Origin: Alistipes sp.
GTDB lineage: Bacteria > Bacteroidota > Bacteroidia > Bacteroidales > Rikenellaceae
DNA length: 44,786 nt
Reading direction: 5' to 3'
Assembly (NCBI GenBank): GCA_017937765.1
Contig: JAGBCY010000024.1
Location: forward strand, 1 to 44,786
Shown here: piece by piece, positions 525 to 36,690 of the stretch
How positions within the stretch are numbered: position 1 is the stretch's first letter
How the letters are laid out: each line of letters opens with the position of its first letter
Made by a program: the position numbers and the translations under genes
Notes under the pieces: generated by a model
The model's database searches: none
Seen by the model: only the letters and a program-made list of their open reading frames with translations
What the model was told of the DNA's origin: nothing

Positions 525-1097
525 ATGACAATTACAGCATCAGACATCAAGATCGGTATGTGTGTTGAGATGGACGGCAAGACTTTTATTGTTGTTGACT
601 TCCAGCACTGTAAGCCCGGTAAGGGTCCCGCATTCGTGCGCTCAAAGCTCAAGAACCTCGAGAACGGTAACGTCCTCGATAAGACTTTCTCTTCTGTATC
701 GCAGAAGATCGAGCAGGTACGCGTAGAGCGTCGTCCCTATCAGTTCACCTACGAGGACGACCTCGGTGCACACTTTATGCACACCGAGACTTTCGAGGAG
801 ATCAACATCGACAAGAACCTTATCAACAACGCAGACCTTATGGCTGATGGCCAGATCGTTGAGGTTATGTTCCACACCGAGAAGGAGACTGTTCTCTCGG
901 CTGAGCTTCCTCCCATCGTTGATATGGAGGTTACCTACACCGAGCCCGGTGTTCGTGGCGATACCGCATCTACCAACTCTTTGAAGGCTGCTACCGTTAA
1001 CACTGGTGCAACCATCAAGGTTCCCTTGTTCATCAACACTGGTGACAAGATTCGTGTTGATACACGTACTCGTGAGTATTACGAGCGCATCAAGTAA
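525..1097 (+). CDS. efp: Elongation factor P
   Basis: EF-P binds between the ribosomal P and E sites and relieves stalling on polyproline stretches. The 190-aa length matches the family (about 188). Domain I carries the loop CKPGKGPAFVR, whose Lys33 is the residue that other bacteria modify (lysylation, hydroxylation or other chemistry). The two OB-fold domains follow, and the C-terminal signature (GDTASTNSLKAATVNTGA near 144-161) is present. The start is an ATG about 65 bases behind a clear promoter. The gene stands alone. Its stop codon merges directly into the first of two tandem hairpin elements, which are therefore likely to form the end of its transcript. Confidence 0.97.
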   Translation: MTITASDIKIGMCVEMDGKTFIVVDFQHCKPGKGPAFVRSKLKNLENGNVLDKTFSSVSQKIEQVRVERRPYQFTYEDDLGAHFMHTETFEEINIDKNLINNADLMADGQIVEVMFHTEKETVLSAELPPIVDMEVTYTEPGVRGDTASTNSLKAATVNTGATIKVPLFINTGDKIRVDTRTREYYERIK

Positions 1098-1225
1098 TTT
1101 CTTGTGATAAGGGGCCATCTTTGCCCTATCTAAAAAGTAAGACCCCTCGGGCTGTACTAAATGTACTATCCCGAGGGGATCTTCTTTTCAGATAGAACAA
1201 ATCTAACCCCTTCTGACAAGAAATT
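1096..1225 (+). repeat. Long rod-hairpin element A1 (3' end of efp)
   Basis: A 130-nt element starting inside the efp stop codon. The outer stem is AATTTCTTGT (1096-1105) with ACAAGAAATT (1216-1225), a perfect 10 bp. An internal loop of GAT opposite CTG follows, then AAGGGG with CCCCTT. The middle stem pairs CTATCTAAAAAG with CTTTTCAGATAG. The distal stem is CCCCTCGGG with CCCGAGGGG, and the loop core is CTGTAC-N-GTACTAT. It is one of at least eleven related copies in the window and has no T-run, so it is not a classical intrinsic terminator. Confidence 0.85.
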
Positions 1226-1230
1226 GTGTC

Positions 1231-1354
1231 TTTCTCGTGATAAGGTAGCATCTACCGCCGCTAACAAATTATCTCGTCAATGGGCAGTACGGTAAGTACA
1301 GCCCATCGCCTCGAAATTTGCCGAGCGTTGTATCTGCTACCTTCTGACAAGAAA
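1231..1354 (+). repeat. Long rod-hairpin element A2 (tandem with A1)
   Basis: The second copy, five bases after A1. The outer stem TTTCTCGT/ACAAGAAA has one mismatch. The conserved GAT/CTG internal loop is followed by AAGGTAGC/GCTACCTT. The middle stem is CGCTAACAAATT with AATTTGCCGAGCG, and the distal stem ends in ATGGG/CCCAT type pairing with CAGTAC...GTACAG. The stem sequences differ from A1 while the pairing is kept. Confidence 0.8.
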
Positions 1355-1356
1355 TT

Positions 1357-1440
1357 GCGCTGTGCTATCCAAAACGTTATATCTACAATCATAATTATTC
1401 CTCATTCCTCACTACTCACCGCTAATTACTAATTAATTGT
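1357..1440. repeat. Downstream tail with CTCACTACTCAC/TAATTACTAATTA motif
   Basis: After A2 comes gctgtgctatccaaaacg..., which resembles the sequence after element E (26812-26837). It is followed by a TCACTACTCACCGCTAATTA-type tract at about 1398-1438. Similar tracts occur at 26865-26898 and 31344-31376, each downstream of a hairpin element. The two therefore seem to travel together. Confidence 0.5.
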
Positions 1441-1526: not shown

Positions 1527-3233
1527 ATGAATTTTGAGTGGCTTAAGACTGTCGTGATGGGTAGTGGCGATGCCGCGCACCCCTCGATAGCACACACCGT
1601 CTTTGTCTTGGCGGCCGTTATCGCCTCGGGCATAGCTCTCAGTCGTATCAAGATCAAGGGCATATCTTTCGGTATGACGTGGATTCTGTTCACGGGTATT
1701 GCCTTTGGTCACTTCCTCGATCCGGGGAGCATTCACCACGATACGCTGCACTTTATCAAGGAGTTTGGCCTTATCCTCTTCGTCTTCTTCATCGGCTTGC
1801 AGGTAGGACCGGGTTTCTTCTCGTCGCTAAAGAGCGGTGGTATTAAACTCATCAGTCTTGCCGCGCTGGTCATACTGCTTGGCGTAGTGCTGGCATATGT
1901 CATCCACCTTGTAACGGGCGAGCCGTTGCCTACGATGGTGGGCGTGCTCTCGGGTGCTGTGACCAATACCCCCGGTCTTGGTGCTGCGCAGCAGGCCTAT
2001 GCTGACTCTGGTATGGCCGACCCCGCTATTGCTGACTCAATATCGTTGGGCTATGCCGTAGCATATCCTTTGGGTGTTGTGGGTATCATCCTCACAATCA
2101 TCATTATGCGCTATGTGCTGCGCGTAGACTTTAAGAAGGAGGATGAGGGTCTTGCTGCCTTGAGCGATGTGACGAACCTGCCGCAGCGTTTCTCGGTGGA
2201 GTTCACCAACGAGATGCTCGAGGGTAAGACTATCGCCGTGGCTCATATGCTTATCAATCGCCAGTTTGTGGTGTCGCGTATTATGCACGCCTCGGGCGAG
2301 ATTGTTATGGCCGACGGTAACTCGAAGCTCACCGTGGGCGACCGCCTGCGTATCATCTGCACCGAGGAGGATAGCGAGGCGATTCTCGCATTCTTCGGTA
2401 AGCCTGTGGAGATGACGGCTGACGACTGGGGTGCTACGGCTATGCAGTCTACGCCGCTCGTGTCGCGTCGTATCCTCATCACACGTGAGGAGATCAACGG
2501 TAAGAAGTTCTCGGACCTTCGCCTCCGCACGCGCTACGGTATAAATATCACCCGTGTACACCGTGCCGGTGTCGACCTCATCCCTTATCAAGGTATGGAG
2601 CTTCAGGTGGGTGATAAGGTTATGGTTGTGGGTCCCGAGGCAGCTGTTGCTCAGGCCGAGAAGGTGCTCGGTAACTCGCTCAAGAAGCTCGACCATCCCA
2701 ACCTCCTGCCCGTATTTATCGGCATAGCCCTCGGTGTCGTCCTCGGCTCTATGCCTCTGATGAATATCCCGCAGCCCGTGAAGCTCGGCTTGGCAGGCGG
2801 TCCGCTTATCATTGCCATCCTTCTTGGTCGTTATGGTCCTCATTTCCACCTCGTTACCTATACTACGATGAGTGCCAACCTGATGCTCCGCGAGATAGGC
2901 CTCGCGATGTTCCTTGCGGCCGTAGGTATCGGGGCGGGCGACGGTTTTATCGACGCAGTAATAAATGGTGGTTATAAGTGGATTGGCTATGGTGTGATTA
3001 TCACCGTTGTACCCCTTGTGCTCGTTGCGCTCCTCGCGCGTCTGAAGTTCAAGCTCAACTACTACACCCTTATGGGTCTTATGGCGGGCTCTATGACCGA
3101 TCCCCCAGCCCTCGGCTTTGCCAGTGCATCATCTGGTAACGATATGCCTGCTGTGAGCTATGCCACTGTTTATCCAGTAGTTATGTTCCTGCGAGTATTA
3201 ACCGCTCAGCTCCTAATGCTCGCGGCCCTTTAA
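1527..3233 (+). CDS. AspT/YidE/YbjL-family transporter with two TrkA-C domains
   Basis: An inner-membrane protein of 568 aa built as an inverted tandem. An N-terminal membrane half (about 20-185) is followed by two cytoplasmic TrkA-C/RCK-C regulatory domains (about 205-290 and 300-385) and a C-terminal membrane half (about 395-565). The duplicated helix motifs GVLSGAVTNTPGLG and GLMAGSMTDPPALG mark the two halves of an AspT-type permease. Known AspT exchanges aspartate and alanine, while YidE/YbjL substrates are unknown, so I do not assign a substrate. The length fits the YidE class. The gene has its own promoter, and its stop codon leads directly into hairpin element B1. Confidence 0.88.
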   Translation: MNFEWLKTVVMGSGDAAHPSIAHTVFVLAAVIASGIALSRIKIKGISFGMTWILFTGIAFGHFLDPGSIHHDTLHFIKEFGLILFVFFIGLQVGPGFFSSLKSGGIKLISLAALVILLGVVLAYVIHLVTGEPLPTMVGVLSGAVTNTPGLGAAQQAYADSGMADPAIADSISLGYAVAYPLGVVGIILTIIIMRYVLRVDFKKEDEGLAALSDVTNLPQRFSVEFTNEMLEGKTIAVAHMLINRQFVVSRIMHASGEIVMADGNSKLTVGDRLRIICTEEDSEAILAFFGKPVEMTADDWGATAMQSTPLVSRRILITREEINGKKFSDLRLRTRYGINITRVHRAGVDLIPYQGMELQVGDKVMVVGPEAAVAQAEKVLGNSLKKLDHPNLLPVFIGIALGVVLGSMPLMNIPQPVKLGLAGGPLIIAILLGRYGPHFHLVTYTTMSANLMLREIGLAMFLAAVGIGAGDGFIDAVINGGYKWIGYGVIITVVPLVLVALLARLKFKLNYYTLMGLMAGSMTDPPALGFASASSGNDMPAVSYATVYPVVMFLRVLTAQLLMLAAL

Positions 3234-3360
3234 TTTTTGATTATAAGGCAGCATCTACTGCCGCTAACAAAAAGTGCCGTCAATGGGCTGTGCCTCTATG
3301 TACTATCCCATCGACGGCATTTTTGCTGAGCGTTGTATCTACAGCCTTCTAATCAAAATT
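3232..3360 (+). repeat. Long rod-hairpin element B1 (3' end of AspT-like gene)
   Basis: It starts in the stop codon of the transporter gene. The outer stem is TTTTGAT with ATCAAAA, a different sequence from A1 but paired in the same place. The internal loop is the variant TAT opposite CTA. The middle stem is CGCTAACAAAAA with TTTTTGCTGAGCG. The distal stem is TGCCGTCaATGGG with CCCATcGACGGCA, with an A/C mismatch that recurs in A2 and D1. The core CTGT...TACTAT is kept. Confidence 0.82.
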
Positions 3361-3362
3361 TA

Positions 3363-3463
3363 TTTTCTGTGATAAGAGGCCTACCTCGGCACATCCCTAA
3401 AAGTGATACCCCTCGGGCTGTACGTTTAAGTACTATCCCGAGGGGTATCTTTTTGCGATGCCC
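3363..3463 (+). repeat. Truncated rod-hairpin element B2 (tandem with B1)
   Basis: The left half begins TTTTCTGT-GAT-AAGAGGC as in the intact copies. The middle stem (CATCCCTAAAAG with CTTTTTGCGATG) and a perfect 12-bp distal stem (ATACCCCTCGGG with CCCGAGGGGTAT) are present. The right outer arm that should pair with TTTTCTGT is missing, and the sequence runs straight into the 10-base repeat. Confidence 0.75.
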
Positions 3464-3473
3464 ACATCTTGCC

Positions 3474-3523
3474 CCCATATTAACCCATATTAACTCATCG
3501 GAACCCATTTTAACCCATCGAAA
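3474..3523. repeat. 10-base tandem repeat, five units
   Basis: Five consecutive 10-base units read CCCATATTAA, CCCATATTAA, CTCATCGGAA, CCCATTTTAA and CCCATCGAAA. They lie between the broken element B2 and the promoter of the SPFH operon. There is no spacer structure, so this is not a CRISPR array. Confidence 0.8.
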
Positions 3524-7841: not shown

Positions 7842-9632
7842 ATGAAGAATATACGTAACTTTTGCATTATAGCACACATCGACCACGGTAAGAGTACGCT
7901 CGCCGATCGTCTCCTTGAGAAGACCAACACGCTGAACCAGCGCGAGATGCAGGCACAGGTGTTGGACGATATGGACCTCGAGCGCGAGAAGGGTATCACC
8001 ATCAAGAGCCACGCCATACAGATGGAGTACAAGGCACGCGATGGTCAGAGCTACACGCTCAACCTTATCGACACTCCGGGACACGTAGACTTCTCGTACG
8101 AGGTGTCGCGTGCCATCGCTTCGTGCGAGGGTGCGCTGCTTGTGGTGGATGCTACGCAGGGTATTCAGGCACAGACCATCTCTAACCTTTATCTCGCCCT
8201 TGGTCAGGATCTTGAGATTATCCCTGTGCTCAATAAGATTGATTGCGAGTCGGCGATGATTGACGAGGTTAAGGATCAGATTATCGACCTCATCGGTTGC
8301 AAGGAGGAGGATATATTGCTCGCTTCGGGTAAGACGGGTCAGGGTGTTGAGGATGTCTTGGAGGCTATTGTCGAGCGTATCCCCGCACCTGAGGGTGACG
8401 AGAACGCTCCGTTGCAGGCCCTCATCTTCGACTCGGTATTTAATCCCTTCCGTGGCGTTATTGCCTACTTCCGTGTTTTCAACGGCACGATCCGCAAGGG
8501 TGACCACGTCAAGTTCTTCAATACGGGCAGCGAGTATGATGCCGATGAGATTGGCGTTTTGAAACTTAAGATGGTCGAGCGCGGTGAGATAAAGGCTGGC
8601 GACGTGGGCTACATCTGCTCGGGCATCAAGAACTCCACGGATGTGAAGGTGGGTGACACGATCACTGCCGTTGCGAACCCCTCGAAGGAGGCTATCGCCG
8701 GCTTCGAAGATGTGAAGCCTATGGTCTTTGCCGGAGTCTATCCCGTTGAGGCTGACCAGTATGAGGACCTGCGTGCCTCGCTCGAGAAACTCAAGCTCAA
8801 CGACGCATCGCTCACGTTCGAGCCCGAGAGCTCACTGGCCCTCGGCTTCGGCTTCCGATGTGGCTTCCTCGGCCTGTTGCATATGGAGATTATTCAGGAG
8901 CGTCTCTATCGCGAGTTCGATATGGATGTAATCACCACCGTGCCCAACGTGTCGTACCGCATCACCACGACACAGGGCGAGGAACTTGAGGTGCATAACC
9001 CATCGGGCCTTCCAGAGATTACGAAGGTGGCAAAGATTGAGGAGCCATATATCCTTGCGCAGATAATCACCAAGGCCGACTTCCTCGGTAACGTGCTCAA
9101 ACTCTGTATCGACAAGCGCGGCGTTATGAAGAACCAGTCCTACATCACGCAGGACCGCGTGGAGGTAAACTTCGAGATGCCGCTCTCGGAGATCGTCTTC
9201 GACTTCTACGATAAGCTCAAGAGCATATCTAAGGGCTATGCCTCGTTCGACTACCACCGCACGGGCTACCAGCCGAGTAAGCTCGCCAAGCTCGATATCC
9301 TGCTCAACGGTGAGGCTGTCGATGCTCTCTCGTCGCTGATATATGCCGACCACGCCTACGACTTCGGCCGTAAGATGTGTGAGAAGCTCAAGGAGCTCAT
9401 CCCGCGCCAGCAGTTCGATATCGCCATTCAGGCAGCTATCGGTGCAAAGATTATCGCTCGCGAGACGGTTAAGGCTGTGCGTAAGGATGTTACGGCCAAG
9501 TGTTATGGTGGTGATATCTCGCGTAAGCGTAAGCTTCTTGAGAAGCAGAAGGCCGGTAAGAAGCGTATGCGTCAGATTGGCTCGGTGCAGGTGCCGCAGT
9601 CGGCGTTCTTGGCTGTGCTTAAGATGGATTAA
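7842..9632 (+). CDS. lepA: Elongation factor 4 (LepA) GTPase
   Basis: A ribosome-associated translational GTPase that acts on stalled or mis-translocated ribosomes and during 30S assembly. The length of 596 aa is standard. The G domain shows [10 protein letters not shown] (G1, about 11-20), EKGITI (G2) and DTPGHVDF (G3). Domains II, III and V and the LepA-specific C-terminal domain follow, ending in the conserved basic [20 protein letters not shown] region. It is alone in its transcript between the divergent htpG and a tRNA gene. Directly after its stop lies the right half of a rod-hairpin element. Confidence 0.97.
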
Positions 9633-9674
9633 AATTTGCCGAGCGTTGTATCTGAAGCCTTCTCGCAACAAATA
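9632..9674 (+). repeat. Orphan right half of a rod-hairpin element (C)
   Basis: The sequence AATTTGCCGAGCGTTGTATC followed by TGAAGCCTTCTCGCAACAAA matches the right halves of A2 (about 1313-1356) and B1 (about 3320-3360). No left half is present, so it cannot form the complete rod. It begins at the lepA stop codon, the same position relative to a gene as the complete copies. Confidence 0.75.
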
Positions 9675-9772: not shown

Positions 9773-9845
9773 GCGGTAGTAGCTCAGTCGGTAGAGCATC
9801 GGCTTCCCAAGCCGAGGGTCGCGGGTTCGAGCCCCGTCTACCGCT
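9773..9845 (+). tRNA. tRNA-Gly (anticodon CCC)
   Basis: A 73-nt cloverleaf. Acceptor stem GCGGTAG/CTACCGC, D-arm GCTC/GAGC, anticodon stem TCGGC/GCCGA with loop TTCCCAA (anticodon CCC), T-arm GCGGG/CCCGT with loop TTCGAGC, discriminator T. All stems pair, with one G-T pair in the T stem. CCA is not encoded. It decodes GGG codons. Its 3' end is duplicated 119 bases downstream. Confidence 0.95.
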
Positions 9846-9887: not shown

Positions 9888-9938
9888 AACGCCCCTCTCA
9901 GGGGCTGGGGGTGTAAACATAAAAAACGGGCGCGTAAG

Positions 9939-9965
9939 CGCGGGTTTAAGCCCCGTCTACCGCTC
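9939..9965 (+). repeat. Direct repeat of the tRNA-Gly 3' end (att-like)
   Basis: 27 bases match the tRNA 3' end (9820-9846) with two mismatches, in the T-loop (TTTAAG in place of TTCGAG). tRNA 3'-end duplications are the usual footprint of tyrosine-recombinase integration. The interval between the copies is only 92 bases and has no integrase, so any element has been lost, or the copy arose by local duplication. Confidence 0.75.
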
Positions 9966-9966
9966 C

Positions 9967-10092
9967 CTTTGATGTGATAGTGTGTCTCTGTGGCACCAAG
10001 CTCATTGCCCCGAATGGGGAAATACGCCGAGTATTACCCCATCCGTTTCAATTTCGACTTGGCACCGCAGCTAACGCACTCTGACATCAAAG
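9967..10092 (+). repeat. Rod-hairpin element D1 (after tRNA-Gly)
   Basis: The outer stem is CTTTGATGT (9967-9975) with ACATCAAAG (10084-10092), a perfect 9 bp. The conserved internal loop GAT (9976-9978) lies opposite CTG (10081-10083). Then AGTGTG pairs with CGCACT. The middle stem contains CCAAG/CTTGG. The distal stem CGaATGGGG/CCCCATcCG carries the recurrent A/C mismatch, and AATAC gccga GTATT caps it. Confidence 0.82.
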
Positions 10093-10100
10093 CATTAGAG

Positions 10101-10212
10101 GTGATAGTGTGTCATCTGTGGCACCAAGCTCATTGCCCCGAATGGGGAAATACGCCGAGTATTACCCCATCCGTTTCAATTTCGACTTGGCACCGCAGCT
10201 AATACACTTTGA
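10101..10212 (+). repeat. Rod-hairpin element D2, near-identical tandem copy of D1
   Basis: From GTGATAGTGTGTC onward it is almost base-for-base identical to D1 through GCACCGCAGCTAA, at a period of about 127 bases. Its outer stem is degraded: the left flank no longer matches, and the right side reads CACTTTGATAAC. The duplication looks recent, while the outer arms have diverged. A 70-codon frame running through both copies simply repeats the same peptide and is not a gene. Confidence 0.8.
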
Positions 10213-10275
10213 TAACAAATTACTGTCGATTGTTTTCAAGACCTTACAACTCAACACCGAAATAAACCTATAACT

Positions 10276-25776: not shown

Positions 25777-26682
25777 ATGGTAAAACCTACTCTTTTGGTC
25801 TTAGCAGCGGGTATGGGCTCGCGCTATGGATCGCTCAAACAGATGGATGGTGTAGGCCCTAATGGCGAGGCTATCATCGACTACTCGGTCTACGATGCTA
25901 TACGTGCAGGATTTGGTAAGGTGGTGTTTGTCATCCGTCACTCTTTCGAGGCCGACTTCCGCGAGGTGTTCAACGCAGAACGCTTTGGCCATAAGATCGA
26001 AGTCGAGTATGTATTCCAGGAGCTCGACTATCTCCCCGAGGGCTTCGCTTTGCCCGAGGGTCGTGTTAAGCCGTGGGGTACAAACCACGCCGTGATGATG
26101 GCCTCGGGCGTTATCAACGAGCCCTTCGCCGTGATCAATGCCGACGACTTCTACGGCCGCGAGGCTTATGCCGCTATCTGCGACTATCTCAAGACGTTGG
26201 AGGGAACTGAGGGTCGCTACTGTATGGTTGGCTATCAGGTGAATAAGACCCTCTCGGAGAACGGTACGGTATCGCGCGGTGTCTGCACCGTTGATGAGGA
26301 TGGTAACCTCCGCGGTATGGTCGAGCGCACACAGATAGAGCGCGTCAATGGTACCATAGTATTCCACGATGGTGGGGCAGATGAACCTCTTGCGGAGGAT
26401 ACTCCCGTGTCGATGAACCTCTTTGGTTTCACGCCCGATTACTTCCGCCACTCCGAGGCATACTTCAAGGAGTTCCTTGCGGTAAACATCGAGAACCTGA
26501 AGGCCGAGTTCTTCATCCCTCTTATGGTGAATAAGGTGATTAACGAGGGCACTGCGTCGATGCGCGTGCTTAGAACTCCAAGCGATTGGTTTGGCGTGAC
26601 TTACAAGGAGGACAAGCCTATGCTTGTTGCCAAGATTGAGGAGCTTATTGAGCGTGGGGTTTATCCGCGCAACCTCTGGTAA
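25777..26682 (+). CDS. Sugar-phosphate nucleotidyltransferase-like protein
   Basis: A 301-aa cytosolic protein of the NTP_transferase (GT-A) fold. The start LLVLAAGMGSRYGSLKQMD (6-24) is the nucleotide-binding signature with variant spacing from RfbA/GalU. VINADDFYG is the metal-binding acidic loop. Substrate cannot be read from sequence; the family in this phylum is annotated generally as nucleotidyltransferase. It has its own promoter and is monocistronic. Its stop codon is the first base triplet of hairpin element E. Confidence 0.82.
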   Translation: MVKPTLLVLAAGMGSRYGSLKQMDGVGPNGEAIIDYSVYDAIRAGFGKVVFVIRHSFEADFREVFNAERFGHKIEVEYVFQELDYLPEGFALPEGRVKPWGTNHAVMMASGVINEPFAVINADDFYGREAYAAICDYLKTLEGTEGRYCMVGYQVNKTLSENGTVSRGVCTVDEDGNLRGMVERTQIERVNGTIVFHDGGADEPLAEDTPVSMNLFGFTPDYFRHSEAYFKEFLAVNIENLKAEFFIPLMVNKVINEGTASMRVLRTPSDWFGVTYKEDKPMLVAKIEELIERGVYPRNLW

Positions 26683-26811
26683 TTTCTTGTGATAAGGGGT
26701 TATTCTCGGCACATCCCAAAAGCTTAAATGGCCACGGGCTGTAGCTTTAGTACTATCCCGTGGTCATTTCTTTTGCGATGCACCAAGCCTAACCCTTTCT
26801 GACAAGAAATT
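26681..26811 (+). repeat. Rod-hairpin element E (3' end of nucleotidyltransferase gene)
   Basis: Starting in the stop codon, AATTTCTTGT (26681-26690) pairs perfectly with ACAAGAAATT (26802-26811). GAT lies opposite CTG, then AAGGGGT pairs with ACCCTTT (one G-T pair). The middle stem CATCCCAAAAG/CTTTTGCGATG and the distal CCACGGG/CCCGTGG follow, with the core CTGTAG...AGTACTAT. It lies between convergent genes, oriented with the plus-strand gene. Confidence 0.85.
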
Positions 26812-26898
26812 ATGGCGTGCTGTCCCGAATGTTATATTCCCAGCTCGCCCGAGCCAACGAATTTATTGCTCACTACTCACTACTCACTGCTCATTACA
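26812..26898. repeat. Downstream tail of element E with CACTACTCACTACTCACT tract
   Basis: GGCGTGCTGTCCCGAATGTT resembles the 20 bases after element A2 (1358-1378). A CTCACTACTC repeat tract at 26865-26898 follows, comparable with 1398-1438 and 31344-31376. Confidence 0.5.
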
Positions 26899-26910
26899 CT
26901 CTACGCGGCA

Positions 26911-28923: not shown

Positions 28924-31140
28924 ATGGATCTGTTTATTGTTATCACCTTGGCAGTTCTTGCCATGATGGGTATCATCGTCGGTGTTTCGAACGATGCCGT
29001 AAACTTCCTAAACTCAGCCTTCGGATCGAAGGTGGCCAAGAAGAATATTATCCTCTCGGTCGCTGGCATCGGTGTGATGGTGGGTGTTATGACATCGAGC
29101 GGTATGATGGATGTGGCACGTAGTGGCGTGTTCTACCCTGCAATGTTTAGTTACGAGGAGATTATGATTCTATTCCTCGGTATGATGCTCTCGAACATCA
29201 TCCTCTTGGATATCTACAACTCGCTCGGCTTACCAACCTCTACGACCGTGTCACTCGTCTTTGGCTTGCTCGGCTCGGCAATGGCCCTCGCACTATATAA
29301 TATATGGGGCGGTACCACCGAGGCATCGCTCGGCGAGTTCATCAACTCGGGTAACGCCTTGGCTATTGTGTCGGGTATCCTGCTCTCCGTAGTCTTGGCA
29401 TTCTTCACGGGTCACCTTCTGATGTACATCTCGCGTATAATCTTCTCGTTCCGCTACCATAAGCTCTTCAGCCGTTTTGGTGCTCTGTGGTGCGGTATCA
29501 CGGTTGCGGGTATCATCTATTTTACGGTGTTTAAGGGCTTGAAGAGCTCGGGCCTTATCCCTGAGGTGGTGACCAACTACGTGAACGATAATACGGCTAT
29601 ATCACTGCTTATCCTCTGGGTCGGTAGCTCGCTCCTACTCTGGGTGTTGCAGCGTTGCAATGTCAATATTTTGCGCGTCTCTATCCTTGCCGGTACCTTC
29701 TCTTTGGCGTTGGCATTTGCGGGTAACGACCTCGTGAACTTTATCGGTGTTCCTTATGCTGGCTACGACTCATATATGATTGCTCAGGCATCTGGCGCAG
29801 CACCCACCTCTATGGCTGCCCTTTCGGAGCCTACGCAGGCAAACTTCTGGATTATGTGTGCTGCGGGCTTGGTGATGGTGGTTACGCTCTTTACCTCGAA
29901 GAAGGCTATGCGCGTAATCGAGACCGAGCGCAAGCTCTCGTCGCAGAGCGAGGAGGCACCCACAAATAGCGAGGCTACGGTGGCGTCGCGTGGTATTGTA
30001 CGCGGCGTGCGCCGTATGAACGATGCCCTCGCAGCCATCACGCCTAACGGTGTCAAGAGGTTTATCAACAGCCGCTTCGAGCAGTTGCCCGAGGATGAGC
30101 GTGGCGATGTGAACTACGACCTTATCCGCGCTACGGTGAACCTCACGGCAGCCGCAATCCTTATCTCTATCGGTACGCAGCTCAAGTTGCCTCTCTCGAC
30201 TACCTACGTCGTATTTATGGTGTCGATGGGTTCATCGCTTGCCGACCGTGCGTGGGGACGTGAGAGTGCCGTTTACCGTATCACGGGCGTCACAACCGTG
30301 ATTATGGGTTGGTTTATCACGGCCGTGGGTGGCTTTGTTATCGCTCTTGTCGTAACCCTCGTCCTTGCTTATGGTGGCACGGTTGCTATCATCGGCGTCA
30401 CGGTGGTATGTCTCTTCCTGCTCATCAAGAGTAACTTCTCGAAAGATAAGGCGGAGAAGGAGCGCGAGGAGTCGGCCGTATCGAAGATTGGCGATACGCT
30501 CAAGCAGAGCCCCGAGGAGGCACTCATCGCCTATACCGAGCACGTATGTTCGTCGATGGAGAAGGTTACGATGATCTACGACCGTACCATCGTTGCCGTC
30601 TTTAAGGAGAACCGCAAGGTGTTGCGCGATATGGTGCGCGAGGCTGAGGACTTCTACCACTCTACACGCGAGCAGAAGTACGAGATCATCCCGCTGTTGC
30701 GAACCCTTGAGGAGAGCGATGTAAGCACGGGCCACTTCTATGTTCAGGTTGTGGACTATATCTCGGAGACGAGTAAGGCGTTGCTCCACATCACGCGTCC
30801 CTGCTACAAGCACGTCGATAACAACCATACGGGTCTCTCGAAGGAGCAGGTTTACGACCTCAAGCGTATCAACGACCGTGTGGAGGAGATTTTTGGCGAG
30901 ATTAATGGTATGCTTCGCTCGCGCACGTTCGACAATATGGAGTCGATTCTTAACAAGCGCGACGAGATGTTCGACCTTATCGACGAGGTTATGCAGAACC
31001 AGCTCCGTCGTCTCCGCGACACTGGTGGCTCATCATCGGCCAATATGCTCTTCTTCAACATCTTGACGGAGACAAAGACGATGGTGCTCCATTCGCGAAA
31101 TATTATGAAGTCGCTCGAGCACTTCGTTCATTCTTCGTGA
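28924..31140 (+). CDS. PiT-family phosphate transporter with C-terminal PhoU/DUF47-like domain
   Basis: A 738-aa inner-membrane protein. The two PiT signature halves are GVSNDAVNFLNSAFGS (about 20-35) and GNDLVNFIGVPYAG (about 267-280), with a third related membrane segment near 390-440 (LRLPLSTTYVVFMVSMGSSLADRAW-like). These carry phosphate coupled to protons or sodium. From about 510 to the end the protein is soluble and helical with DUF47/PhoU-like character (EHVCSSMEKVTMIYDR, FYHSTREQKYEIIPLLRTLEE). In other bacteria this regulatory part is a separate protein. The gene is divergent from a PhoB/PhoR-like pair. Its stop codon lies within the left arm of hairpin element F. Confidence 0.9.
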   Translation: MDLFIVITLAVLAMMGIIVGVSNDAVNFLNSAFGSKVAKKNIILSVAGIGVMVGVMTSSGMMDVARSGVFYPAMFSYEEIMILFLGMMLSNIILLDIYNSLGLPTSTTVSLVFGLLGSAMALALYNIWGGTTEASLGEFINSGNALAIVSGILLSVVLAFFTGHLLMYISRIIFSFRYHKLFSRFGALWCGITVAGIIYFTVFKGLKSSGLIPEVVTNYVNDNTAISLLILWVGSSLLLWVLQRCNVNILRVSILAGTFSLALAFAGNDLVNFIGVPYAGYDSYMIAQASGAAPTSMAALSEPTQANFWIMCAAGLVMVVTLFTSKKAMRVIETERKLSSQSEEAPTNSEATVASRGIVRGVRRMNDALAAITPNGVKRFINSRFEQLPEDERGDVNYDLIRATVNLTAAAILISIGTQLKLPLSTTYVVFMVSMGSSLADRAWGRESAVYRITGVTTVIMGWFITAVGGFVIALVVTLVLAYGGTVAIIGVTVVCLFLLIKSNFSKDKAEKEREESAVSKIGDTLKQSPEEALIAYTEHVCSSMEKVTMIYDRTIVAVFKENRKVLRDMVREAEDFYHSTREQKYEIIPLLRTLEESDVSTGHFYVQVVDYISETSKALLHITRPCYKHVDNNHTGLSKEQVYDLKRINDRVEEIFGEINGMLRSRTFDNMESILNKRDEMFDLIDEVMQNQLRRLRDTGGSSSANMLFFNILTETKTMVLHSRNIMKSLEHFVHSS

Positions 31141-31256
31141 TAAGAGGGCATCTTCGGCACATCCCAAAAAGGTAAGATGACCACGGGCTGTACTTCTTGT
31201 ACTATCCCGTGGTCATCTCTTTTGCGATGCACTAAATATGCTCCCTTCTGACAAAG
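31138..31256 (+). repeat. Rod-hairpin element F (3' end of PiT gene)
   Basis: GAT-AAGAGGGCAT at the left faces ATGCTCCCTT-CTG at the right. The outer arms are poorly paired in this copy. The middle stem is CATCCCAAAAAG with CTTTTGCGATG, and the distal stem is a perfect 12 bp (GATGACCACGGG with CCCGTGGTCATC). The core is CTGTAC...GTACTAT. The PiT stop codon TGA provides part of the conserved internal loop. Confidence 0.82.
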
Positions 31257-31343
31257 GATAAGGGTGTGCTATAAGAGGAAAACTTCTTGCCGTAGGAAGT
31301 TCTAATGGCCGCTTTGTTTGAATGGTGCTTCGCTCGAAAAATT

Positions 31344-31376
31344 ATTACCAACTACTCACTACTCATTACTAATTAA
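31344..31376. repeat. ACTACTCACTACTCATTACTAATTA tract
   Basis: The third example of this low-complexity tract, about 90 bases downstream of element F and directly before a hairpin terminator. Compare 1398-1438, 26865-26898 and the shorter ATTACTCATCACTAATTAAT at 9746-9765. Confidence 0.55.
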
Positions 31377-31380
31377 AAGT

Positions 31381-35318: not shown

Positions 35319-36446
35319 ATGAAATTTACAGTATCAAGTTCAGCACTACTCGCGTTGCTCGCAACAACAGGTAAGGTTATCAGCAACAAGAACACACTCC
35401 CCATCCTCGACTTCTTCCTCCTTGAGCTTAAGGATAACGAGCTCACCGTTACGGCATCGGACCTCGAGACTACGCTTATCGGCCATCTTCACGTCGATAA
35501 CGTGGAGCGTGAGGGAGTCATTGCTGCCCCTGCAAAGCTTATGCTCGACTCGTTGAAAGAGTTTCCCGAGATGCCTCTGGAGTTCGATGTGAACGACACG
35601 ACGTGGGAGATTCGCGTGAAGTGGGCAAGCGGCTCGCTCTCGATCCCCGGTGCAAGTGCAGTAAGCTACCCCGCGATGCAGACCATCGGTGCCGAGCATA
35701 AGGAGATACTTATGGATGTAGATATGCTTATCGCCGGCATCAACAAGACCATCTTCGCTACGGCCGACGACGAGCTCCGTCCCGTGATGAATGGCGTGTA
35801 CTTCAACTACGAGGAGGGTAAGATTACCTTCGTGGCAACCGATGCTCACAAGCTCGTGCGCTCTACGGCTGAGTGTGCCGACGTGGACTTTAACTCGTCG
35901 TTCATTCTTCCCAAGAAGCCTGCCAACTTGCTCAAGGGCGTGCTTCTCAAGGAGGAGGATCCTATCCGCGTGACGTTCGATGCCAAGAACGTAATCTTCG
36001 ACCTTAAGAACCACAAGCTCATCTGCCGCCTTATCGAGGGTAACTATCCCAACTACAACGCCGTGATTCCCACGGCTAACCCCAACAAGGTGTTGGTTGA
36101 CCGCGTGGAGCTCGTCAACGGCATCAAGCGTGTGGCTGTGTGTTCTAACCCCACGACAAACCTTATCCGTATGGATATCGCGGGCAATAAGATCAGTCTC
36201 GCAGCTCAGGATATCGACTTCTCGGTATCGGCTAACGAGACCATCTCTTGTAGCTACGACGGTCAGCCTGTGACCATTGGCTTCAAGTCGACATTCCTCG
36301 TGGAGATCCTCTCAAACATCGACACTCCCACCGTGCAGATCGAGCTCGCCGACTCTACCCGTGCCGGCGTATTTAAGCCCGTTTACGATGATAAGCACTC
36401 GGGTGAGGTGTTGATGCTTTTGATGCCGATGATGATCAACGCATAA
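35319..36446 (+). CDS. dnaN: DNA polymerase III beta subunit (sliding clamp)
   Basis: The ring-shaped clamp that tethers polymerase III to DNA. The 375 aa contain the three repeated clamp domains. Recognisable marks are GKVISNKNTLPILDFFLLEL in domain 1, the KTIFATADDELRPVMNGVYF and TDAHKLVRS region in domain 2, and the C-terminal hydrophobic pocket end (GEVLMLLMPMMINA). It is not next to dnaA or gyrB, so this is not an origin-type dnaN cluster. The stop codon leads into tandem hairpin elements G1 and G2. Confidence 0.96.
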   Translation: MKFTVSSSALLALLATTGKVISNKNTLPILDFFLLELKDNELTVTASDLETTLIGHLHVDNVEREGVIAAPAKLMLDSLKEFPEMPLEFDVNDTTWEIRVKWASGSLSIPGASAVSYPAMQTIGAEHKEILMDVDMLIAGINKTIFATADDELRPVMNGVYFNYEEGKITFVATDAHKLVRSTAECADVDFNSSFILPKKPANLLKGVLLKEEDPIRVTFDAKNVIFDLKNHKLICRLIEGNYPNYNAVIPTANPNKVLVDRVELVNGIKRVAVCSNPTTNLIRMDIAGNKISLAAQDIDFSVSANETISCSYDGQPVTIGFKSTFLVEILSNIDTPTVQIELADSTRAGVFKPVYDDKHSGEVLMLLMPMMINA

Positions 36447-36569
36447 TTTGTTGTGATAAGGGGGGCTTTGAATCTTTGCTTGCCTGAAAAATGCTCATTT
36501 ACCTCGAGTAAACTCCGCTTTTTCAGCCTGCGACGAATCTCCACATCTAACCCCTTCTGACAACAAATT
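36445..36569 (+). repeat. Rod-hairpin element G1 (3' end of dnaN)
   Basis: It starts in the dnaN stop codon. AATTTGTTGT (36445-36454) pairs perfectly with ACAACAAATT (36560-36569), a compensated change relative to elements A1 and E (C to G on the left, G to C on the right). GAT/CTG and AAGGGG/CCCCTT are identical to A1. The inner part differs: CTGAAAAATGC/GCTTTTTCAG, then TTTAC ctcga GTAAA. Confidence 0.84.
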
Positions 36570-36573
36570 GGGT

Positions 36574-36690
36574 TGTTTGCTGAGCTAAGAGGTCACCTTC
36601 GACATCTGGCTTGCCGTTGAAGGCGGAGCATATTTGACGTATGGGAGCATTTCAGTGGTTGCAGTCATAACCCCTTTTAACAGCAAATTA
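36574..36690 (+). repeat. Rod-hairpin element G2 (tandem with G1, divergent)
   Basis: TTTGCTG (36576-36582) pairs with CAGCAAA (36681-36687), another compensated outer stem. The internal loop and inner stems are poorly conserved (AAGAGG facing CCCCTTTT), and the distal core motif is lost. It is the most divergent copy I accept. Confidence 0.6.

What the first reader, a model, noticed from the sequence alone, without database searches (positions are those of the whole stretch)
1096..1225. A family of ~125-nt rod-hairpin elements sits at the 3' ends of genes and shows compensatory base changes
Copies lie at 1096-1225, 1231-1354, 3232-3360, 3363-3463 (truncated), 9632-9674 (half), 9967-10092, 10101-10212, 26681-26811, 31138-31256, 36445-36569 and 36574-36690. 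The outer stem changes while staying paired: CTTGT/ACAAG, TTGAT/ATCAA, GATGT/ACATC, GTTGT/ACAAC, TGCTG/CAGCA. The distal stem also covaries (CCCCTCGGG/CCCGAGGGG versus CCACGGG/CCCGTGG). An internal loop of GAT opposite CTG, and a core GGGCTGTAC...GTACTATCCC, are kept unpaired or near-unpaired. That is the signature of selection or transposition on an RNA or DNA structure. I do not recognise a named family.
Basis: seen in the sequence. Interest (0 to 1): 0.85.

Follow-up and report, generated by a model that had tools for sequence, protein, structure and literature searches.

The report
Hairpin repeats anchored at stop codons
A family of roughly 125-letter DNA hairpins occurs dozens of times in a gut bacterium's genome, mostly starting exactly at the end of a gene, where it seems to take over the job of stopping transcription and is replaced as species diverge, like a small mobile element.

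Summary
The repeats are real. A model from 32 copies finds 85 places (63 sites, 20 tandem) in this 1.92-Mb Rikenellaceae genome. No Rfam family matches. Covariation is strong: 92.6% of cells paired, score 0.321 against 0.109 in shuffles and 0.05-0.09 in slid structures. Copies start at a gene's stop codon in gene orientation (151 of 173 first copies) and hold a hairpin with A-run and T-run, like a bidirectional terminator; at efp they stand where relatives have an ordinary terminator. At the same gene in different species, copies are no more alike than at unrelated genes (70.9% against 69.0%). So this is a turnover-prone, probably mobile, non-autonomous element rather than an inherited cis-regulatory RNA. 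Two surprises: the strand antisense to the gene folds better in 199 of 212 copies, and rods with the same cap, mostly starting at stop codons, occur in Desulfovibrionales-like and Spirochaetaceae MAGs. The stop codon is probably the target TA plus the element's first base. The mobilising enzyme is unknown; REP-type transposase and integron integrase were not found in 41 genus genomes.

The parts
1096..1225 (+). Rod copy 1 (cap type GGGCTGTAC..GTACTATCCC); starts in the TAA stop of efp (525-1097)
   Evidence: CM 126.9 bits; efp by NCBIfam; junction
1229..1356 (+). Second, tandem rod after efp (GGGCAGTAC subtype), 3 nt after copy 1
   Evidence: CM 98.7 bits
3232..3361 (+). Rod in the TAA stop of an AspT/YidE-type transporter gene (1527-3233)
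   Evidence: CM 106.7 bits; gene by NCBIfam
3361..3492 (+). Tandem second rod; recognisable to about 3463, 3' arm lost
   Evidence: CM 79 bits
9620..9674 (+). 3' half of a rod directly after the stop of lepA (7842-9632)
   Evidence: nhmmer partial match, model 90-128; gene by NCBIfam
9966..10093 (+). Rod directly after what looks like a duplicated tRNA 3' fragment (about 9928-9966); AATGGGGAAATAC subtype
   Evidence: CM 83.6 bits; sequence
10093..10221 (+). Tandem second rod, 95% identical to the previous one over 105 nt
   Evidence: CM 86.4 bits; repeat D4
26681..26811 (+). Rod in the TAA stop of ORF 25777-26682 (no NCBIfam match)
   Evidence: CM 119.9 bits
31129..31260 (+). Rod at the end of ORF 28924-31140; the rod's own TGA is the stop codon here
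   Evidence: CM 115.8 bits
36445..36569 (+). Divergent rod in the TAA stop of dnaN (35319-36446); outer stem kept, inner part changed
   Evidence: CM 67.1 bits; gene by NCBIfam
36574..36689 (+). Weak, divergent tandem second rod
   Evidence: CM 43.5 bits

Best explanation
The rods are a non-autonomous, MITE-like hairpin element family that spreads or is replaced in trans. A copy enters at the TA of a stop codon in the orientation of the gene; the element's first base rebuilds the stop (TA+A = TAA here, TA+G = TAG in Desulfovibrionales-like genomes), so the protein is unchanged. Its apical hairpin, flanked by an A-run and a T-run, then serves as a bidirectional intrinsic terminator and takes the place of the gene's own. 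Shown by sequence: repeat family, covariation, stop-codon position, turnover, missing ordinary terminator at efp. Inferred: active movement, insertion at TA, terminator function, and recognition of the folded bottom strand by an unidentified enzyme.
For: 85 places in the genome, 20 of 63 sites tandem. At 51 orthologous sites with proteins 77-100% identical, rods average 70.9% identity against 69.0% at non-orthologous sites of the same genomes; the best own-genome copy is closer in 47 of 50, though that is a best-of-many comparison. efp in 30 genomes keeps the ERIK* end (ERIR* in three rod-free ones) while carrying different rod subtypes, decayed pieces or none. Stop codon at the rod's 5' end in 151 of 173 first copies; only 5 copies show the mirror case at the 3' end, although 88 have an antisense ORF ending within 300 nt. 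TAA at 72 of 83 rod-bearing ends against 234 of 409 rod-free ends, p=1e-7; TAG 5 of 83 against 139 of 409, p=2e-8. 5' flank TA in 94 of 126 first copies with recognisable ends. TTTT at 75-81% T after the apical stem with AAAA at 67-73% A opposite. efp: 21 of 22 genomes without an intact rod have a canonical terminator within 170 nt; in the 8 rod-bearing genomes every hit up to 400 nt lies in a rod or rod remnant, and 5 of 8 have one. Chitinophagaceae rods lie inside a repeat with GGGCCTGCTG inverted ends and TA on both sides in 4 of 6.
Against: No transposase could be linked: no autonomous copy, nor a split one wide enough to hold a gene, was found in the fetched loci; Y1 transposase was found in 0 of 41 genus genomes; reverse transcriptase is missing from six rod-rich genomes. 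A TA duplication is not clean in this genus: after the 3' end come TG 37, TA 32, TT 22 of 115, and TA on both sides in only 21 of 93 single copies. TAATT is plentiful between genes (34 rod-free intergenic sites against 5 at stop codons, by 36 hand-picked window ORFs), so TA targeting alone does not explain the stop-codon bias. Two rods of a Desulfovibrionales-family genome have unrelated outer stems, one after a TGA stop. 4 of 51 orthologous rods are over 85% identical, so some copies are inherited. 3 of the 8 efp rod sites pass no terminator rule, one of them with only 125 bases available. Termination was not measured.
Confidence: 0.5

Rival explanations
1. Single-stranded DNA hairpin site: the bottom strand, folded as a rod with a fixed cap, is the substrate of an unknown recombinase or nuclease, in the way attC bottom strands are for integron integrases.
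For: Bottom strand more stable in 199 of 212 copies (mean 13 kcal/mol, RNA parameters) and 206 of 212 with DNA parameters; in 21 of 21 copies from other lineages, folded with fixed flanks; equal for copies with and without a convergent gene (means 12.6 and 13.4); random imperfect palindromes give 81 of 150. A.C mismatches (105 cells) outnumber G.T (50) on the top strand, i.e. wobbles lie on the bottom strand.
Against: Integron integrase above cut-off in 0 of 41 genus genomes, Y1 transposase 0 of 41. The mismatch counts are not independent: three pairs hold 41 of the 105 A.C cells, and without them the counts are 64 and 46. A bottom-strand transcript would give the same asymmetry.
Confidence: 0.2
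2. Host-kept terminator or 3'-UTR RNA element, inherited at the same genes and homogenised by gene conversion; nothing is mobile.
For: Covariation, terminator-like anatomy, replacement of the ordinary terminator at efp, sites shared between species (51 orthologous pairs).
Against: 13 of 37 same-genus genomes gave no match, and at efp genomes without an intact rod use ordinary terminators; the sense RNA is the worse-folding strand; orthologous rods carry little memory of common descent.
Confidence: 0.15
3. Palindromes maintained by replication template switching: one arm is copied onto the other, so arm changes look compensatory without selection.
For: 298 cells carry double changes against 93 in shuffles. 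Outer stems differ by locus in a Desulfovibrionales-family genome and in Spirochaetaceae while inner parts look alike (read).
Against: Does not explain the fixed cap, the conserved internal loops, the strand asymmetry or the family-wide similarity.
Confidence: 0.1

Closest known systems
ERIC/IRU/RU-1 and other bacterial MITE-like palindromic repeats
   Same: 127 bp intergenic mobile repeats, co-transcribed with neighbouring genes (PMC2229807, passages)
   Different: No sequence match of one rod in 20,395 E. coli records; placed at the stop codon itself in one orientation; strand-asymmetric fold; cap shared by unrelated lineages
Integron attC sites
   Same: Palindromic site recognised as a folded single strand, bottom strand favoured, with little sequence conservation (PMC4792948, passages); a cassette can supply an in-phase stop codon (PMC8876359, passages)
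   Different: No integron integrase above cut-off in the genus; no constant AAC crossover triplet in the outer stem (seen); rods follow housekeeping genes in place; attC hairpins are reported not to end transcription (PMC8876359, passages)
REP elements with RAYT (TnpA_REP)
   Same: Extragenic palindromes, thought to be mobilised in trans
   Different: REPs are 20-40 bp (PMC3733652, start of abstract); Y1 transposase in 0 of 41 genus genomes
Bidirectional intrinsic terminators
   Same: A-run, hairpin, T-run at the gene end
   Different: Embedded in a 125-nt repeated rod that starts at the stop codon and is shared among many genes
Palindromic candidate structured RNAs of Bacteroidetes (HMP2_4205, 132 bp; HMP2_1032, 106 bp)
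   Same: Length class, palindromic, predicted terminators (PMC8040213, passages)
   Different: Sequences are in supplements that were not open here, so overlap is untested

Membership tests
Any Rfam 15 family | Score at or above a family's gathering threshold | tested here: not met
   Only a tRNA in the window; nothing at the rods up to E=5 in the window, L158, L141, L114
REP/RAYT | Y1 (HUH) transposase in the genome | tested here: not met
   0 of 41 genus genomes, controls ring in 5 of 14; assemblies are 71-99% complete
REP/RAYT | Short 20-40 bp palindrome with GTAG or CGTC tag | tested here: not met
   Rods are about 125-132 nt and start AATTTC
Integron attC | Integron integrase present | tested here: not met
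   0 of 41 above cut-off; weak hits occur in all 41 and in all 14 control genomes, none of which passes the cut-off either
Integron attC | Bottom-strand hairpin favoured | tested here: met
   199 of 212 copies by predicted energy
Integron attC | Conserved AAC crossover triplet on the bottom strand | tested here: not met
   Consensus outer stem AATTTCTTGT/ACAAGAAATT has none; GTTGT variants do (read)
ERIC | Sequence similarity to enterobacterial copies | tested here: not met
   No blastn match up to E=0.1 in E. coli genomes; only window:1096-1225 was used
MITE (DDE transposon-derived) | Multi-copy, no coding gene, inverted ends | tested here: met
   no gene between split ends in the fetched loci
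MITE (DDE transposon-derived) | Target-site duplication | tested here: inconclusive
   TA on both sides in 4 of 6 Chitinophagaceae copies, 21 of 93 single copies of this genus, 3 of 9 Desulfovibrionales-like copies (read)
MITE (DDE transposon-derived) | Matching transposase with the same ends | tested here: inconclusive
   No autonomous copy in the fetched loci; whole genomes were not scanned for DDE transposases
Intrinsic terminator | Stable hairpin followed by a T-run | tested here: met
   5 of 8 efp rod sites pass the strict rule
Intrinsic terminator | Transcripts end there | not testable with these tools
   Needs Term-seq

The most novel reading that the evidence does not exclude
A new class of mobile hairpin, recognised as a folded single bottom strand through a fixed apical cap (GGG-ATA-GTAC..GTAC-AG-CCC on that strand), which is aimed at stop codons, rebuilds the stop and installs a terminator. 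The same class would exist in Rikenellaceae, Desulfovibrionales-like bacteria, Spirochaetaceae and (inside a larger repeat) Chitinophagaceae, moved by an enzyme not yet known.
Probability: 0.3. Interest if true: 0.87.

Novelty: new variant of a known kind. Interest (0 to 1): 0.64.

Why it matters
If right, transcription terminators in a group of gut bacteria are being handed out by a mobile element that enters exactly at stop codons without harming the protein, a placement that I know of in no described repeat family (from memory; my paper searches were limited). The strand asymmetry and the cap shared by unrelated phyla point to an unknown machine acting on folded single strands, and the question of how hairpin sites come to sit at gene ends becomes testable.

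Tried and rejected
Named RNA family: rejected. A recalled lead, the skipping-rope RNA (in Rfam as RF02924), was dropped because nothing at the rods matched. REP/IS200-type mobilisation: not supported in this genus. Integron integrase: not found above cut-off. Retroposon primed at the stop codon: weakened, since reverse transcriptase was not found in rod-rich G011, G017, G021, G022, G028, G035 and truncated copies more often keep the 3' part (24) than the 5' part (11), overlapping loci included. Carriage by phages or plasmids: no match of the core in viral contigs, nor of one rod in phages or plasmids. Sense 3'-UTR RNA as the selected fold: weakened by the strand asymmetry. Gene truncation by insertion: not so at efp, whose C-terminus is unchanged. 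A phylum-wide motif: not supported; outside this genome only G242 (5 matches) exceeds 3, and controls reach 3. The simple terminator scan was uninformative because it allows no internal loop. In one search one genome (G021) was misread; supersede it. One search printed nothing. One search looked only 170 nt past the stop, mostly rod; one search extended this to 400 nt.

Full report
Observation. The window holds ten rod copies and one half copy, all on the + strand. The window is contig C20 of a 1.92-Mb, 85.7% complete assembly. blastn with one copy finds 31 places in that genome; a covariance model from 32 copies of this genome finds 139 matches on both strands at E up to 0.05, which reduce to 85 places in 63 sites, 20 of them tandem (a lower bound, since 150 of 429 candidates were scored). 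Nothing in Rfam 15 matches the rods.

Structure. For a cleaner test I took copies with a cap of the TGTAC/GTACTATCC type, thinned them below 88% identity (80 of 124) and aligned 55, the window copy and 54 of these, from many genomes. A 47-pair rod is 92.6% paired; 29 pairs show changes on both sides; the covariation score is 0.321 against 0.109 (sd 0.006) in 500 shuffles, none of which reach it, and 0.05-0.09 when the 3' partners are slid. Relatedness inflates shuffle tests, but the slid controls keep it. The cap never varies in this set because it was the selection criterion. Template switching between arms could also produce double changes, so this is evidence for a kept palindrome, not yet for RNA.

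Position. An HMM search over 226 fetched loci plus the window gave 252 unique copies. Of these 48 are second copies in tandem; 178 first copies have an ORF of at least 100 codons ending within 160 nt upstream or 14 nt inside, and in 101 of the 178 the stop codon coincides with the rod's first bases (offset -1 or 0); 26 have none, partly because loci are short. With copies of score 45 or more (212, 173 of them first), 151 of 173 have such a stop within -12 to +13 of the 5' end; the mirror test at the 3' end, run on copies not followed by another, gives 5, although 88 have an antisense ORF ending within 300 nt. In some cases the stop codon is the TGA inside the rod (31129-31260 here). ORFs stand in for gene calls throughout. 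One rod follows a tRNA directly (L118), and two rod matches lie about 32 nt after 5S rRNA genes (L065, L161).

Turnover. 24 of 37 same-genus genomes, own included, have matches, and 0 of 24 genomes of other genera in the order. At most 56 candidates per genome were scored there; five of the 24 genomes have only one or two matches, which may not be true rods. At efp the protein end ERIK* is unchanged (ERIR* in three genomes without rods), yet genomes carry different rod subtypes, one or two copies, decayed pieces or none. Rods therefore mostly carry no memory of shared descent at a site, which fits movement or frequent conversion.

Function. After the apical stem four positions are 75-81% T, with four positions 67-73% A opposite (the cap was located in 205 of 212 copies): the anatomy of a bidirectional intrinsic terminator. 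At efp, 21 of 22 genomes without an intact rod have a hairpin plus T-rich tail within 170 nt of the stop; three of these 22 (G003, G029, G061) look like decayed rods. In the 8 rod-bearing genomes every hit up to 400 nt lies in a rod or a rod remnant; 5 of 8 have such a hit and 3 (G000, G006, G062) have none, G062 with only 125 bases available. Termination itself is inferred.

Stop codon. Among ORFs of at least 180 codons, rod-bearing ends use TAA in 72 of 83 cases against 234 of 409 rod-free ends (p=1e-7), and TAG in 5 of 83 against 139 of 409 (p=2e-8). This is expected if the element enters at TA and its first base, A, completes the stop. In Desulfovibrionales-like loci the same count gives TAG 5 of 5 against 15 of 35 (p=0.047). 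Of 198 copies with score 55 or more, 150 had both ends recognisable; the 5' flank is TA in 94 of 126 first copies, but the 3' flank is TG 37, TA 32, TT 22 of 115, and both flanks are TA in 21 of 93 single copies, so a TA duplication is not clean. TAATT is also common away from genes (34 rod-free intergenic sites against 5 at stop codons in the window, with 36 hand-picked ORFs), so a preference for stop codons, or strong selection, is still needed.

Strand. With RNA parameters the strand antisense to the gene folds more stably in 199 of 212 copies (mean 13 kcal/mol), with DNA parameters in 206 of 212. Among copies with at least 700 nt downstream the bias is the same with a convergent ORF nearby (120 of 130) and without (55 of 58), and random imperfect palindromes show none (81 of 150). 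In paired columns A.C cells (105) exceed G.T cells (50) on the sense strand, though three column pairs hold 41 of the 105; without them it is 64 against 46. So the fold under constraint appears to be that of the bottom strand, as ssDNA or as an antisense transcript.

Beyond the genus. The five genomes behind five of these hold 1, 5, 3, 6 and 6 exact matches to a shorter core, with 1, 1, 2, 0 and 2 for the reversed control. In 8 of 9 Desulfovibrionales-like copies an ORF ends with TAG 0-5 nt before the rod (the ninth is ambiguous), and 3 of 3 single Spirochaetaceae copies do likewise with TAG or TAA. In a family sample of 59 genomes, 7 have a match; G471 has four, and the two of these that I could read also start at a stop codon. 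0 of 6 Chitinophagaceae copies start at the end of a long ORF, but these lie inside a repeat with GGGCCTGCTG inverted ends and TA on both sides in 4 of 6. The bottom strand folds better in 21 of 21 of these copies, folded with fixed flanks. The cap was the search key, so it is not independent evidence; rod form, position and strand bias are. In 394 other Bacteroidota genomes only G242 (5) exceeds three core matches, and reversed controls reach three; viral contigs have none.

Mechanism and rivals. I favour a non-autonomous MITE-like element acting in trans, with the stop rebuilt at TA and a terminator supplied. Y1 transposase (0 of 41) and integron integrase (0 of 41 above cut-off, though no control genome passes it either) were not found in the genus; reverse transcriptase (16 of 41) does not track the rods. 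DDE transposases were not surveyed. No autonomous copy was seen in the fetched loci.

Literature. Searches listed no paper whose title or abstract start describes this family; the library holds only open-licence papers. Fremin and Bhatt (PMC8040213, passages) list palindromic Bacteroidetes candidates of 80-132 bp predicted as terminators, which might overlap; their supplements were not open here.

Noticed in passing
window 1357-1440, 26812-26900, 31263-31380; L005, L008, L010, L019, L047: After the last rod of a site many copies share a tail, roughly GGTGTGCTATCC..CGTTATATCTC, often followed by TACTCACTACTCATTAC-like repeats; the mobile unit may be longer than the rod.
   Followed up: partly
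window 9928-9966: Part of a tRNA 3' half seems duplicated just before the rod at 9966, next to the intact tRNA at 9773-9845.
   Followed up: no
L093 (G003), L090 (G061), L094 (G029), after efp: What look like decayed rods whose remaining hairpin has a T-run, as if turned into an ordinary terminator.
   Followed up: partly
L279, L283 (G471): Two rods of one Desulfovibrionales-family genome have unrelated outer stems starting at the stop codon; in L283 pairing seems to run into the last codons, as if a rod sat in the loop of a native terminator.
   Followed up: no
L272, L275, L277 (G462:C85): A Spirochaetaceae MAG contig end carries three cores spaced 89 nt apart as an array.
   Followed up: no
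G242: A Bacteroidota genome of another family has five CTGTACTAC-type core sites, above control; not examined.
   Followed up: no
L080, L145, L171, L001: Some sites keep 6-12 nt of what looks like an older rod's 5' end between the stop codon and the present rod, as if one rod replaced another.
   Followed up: partly
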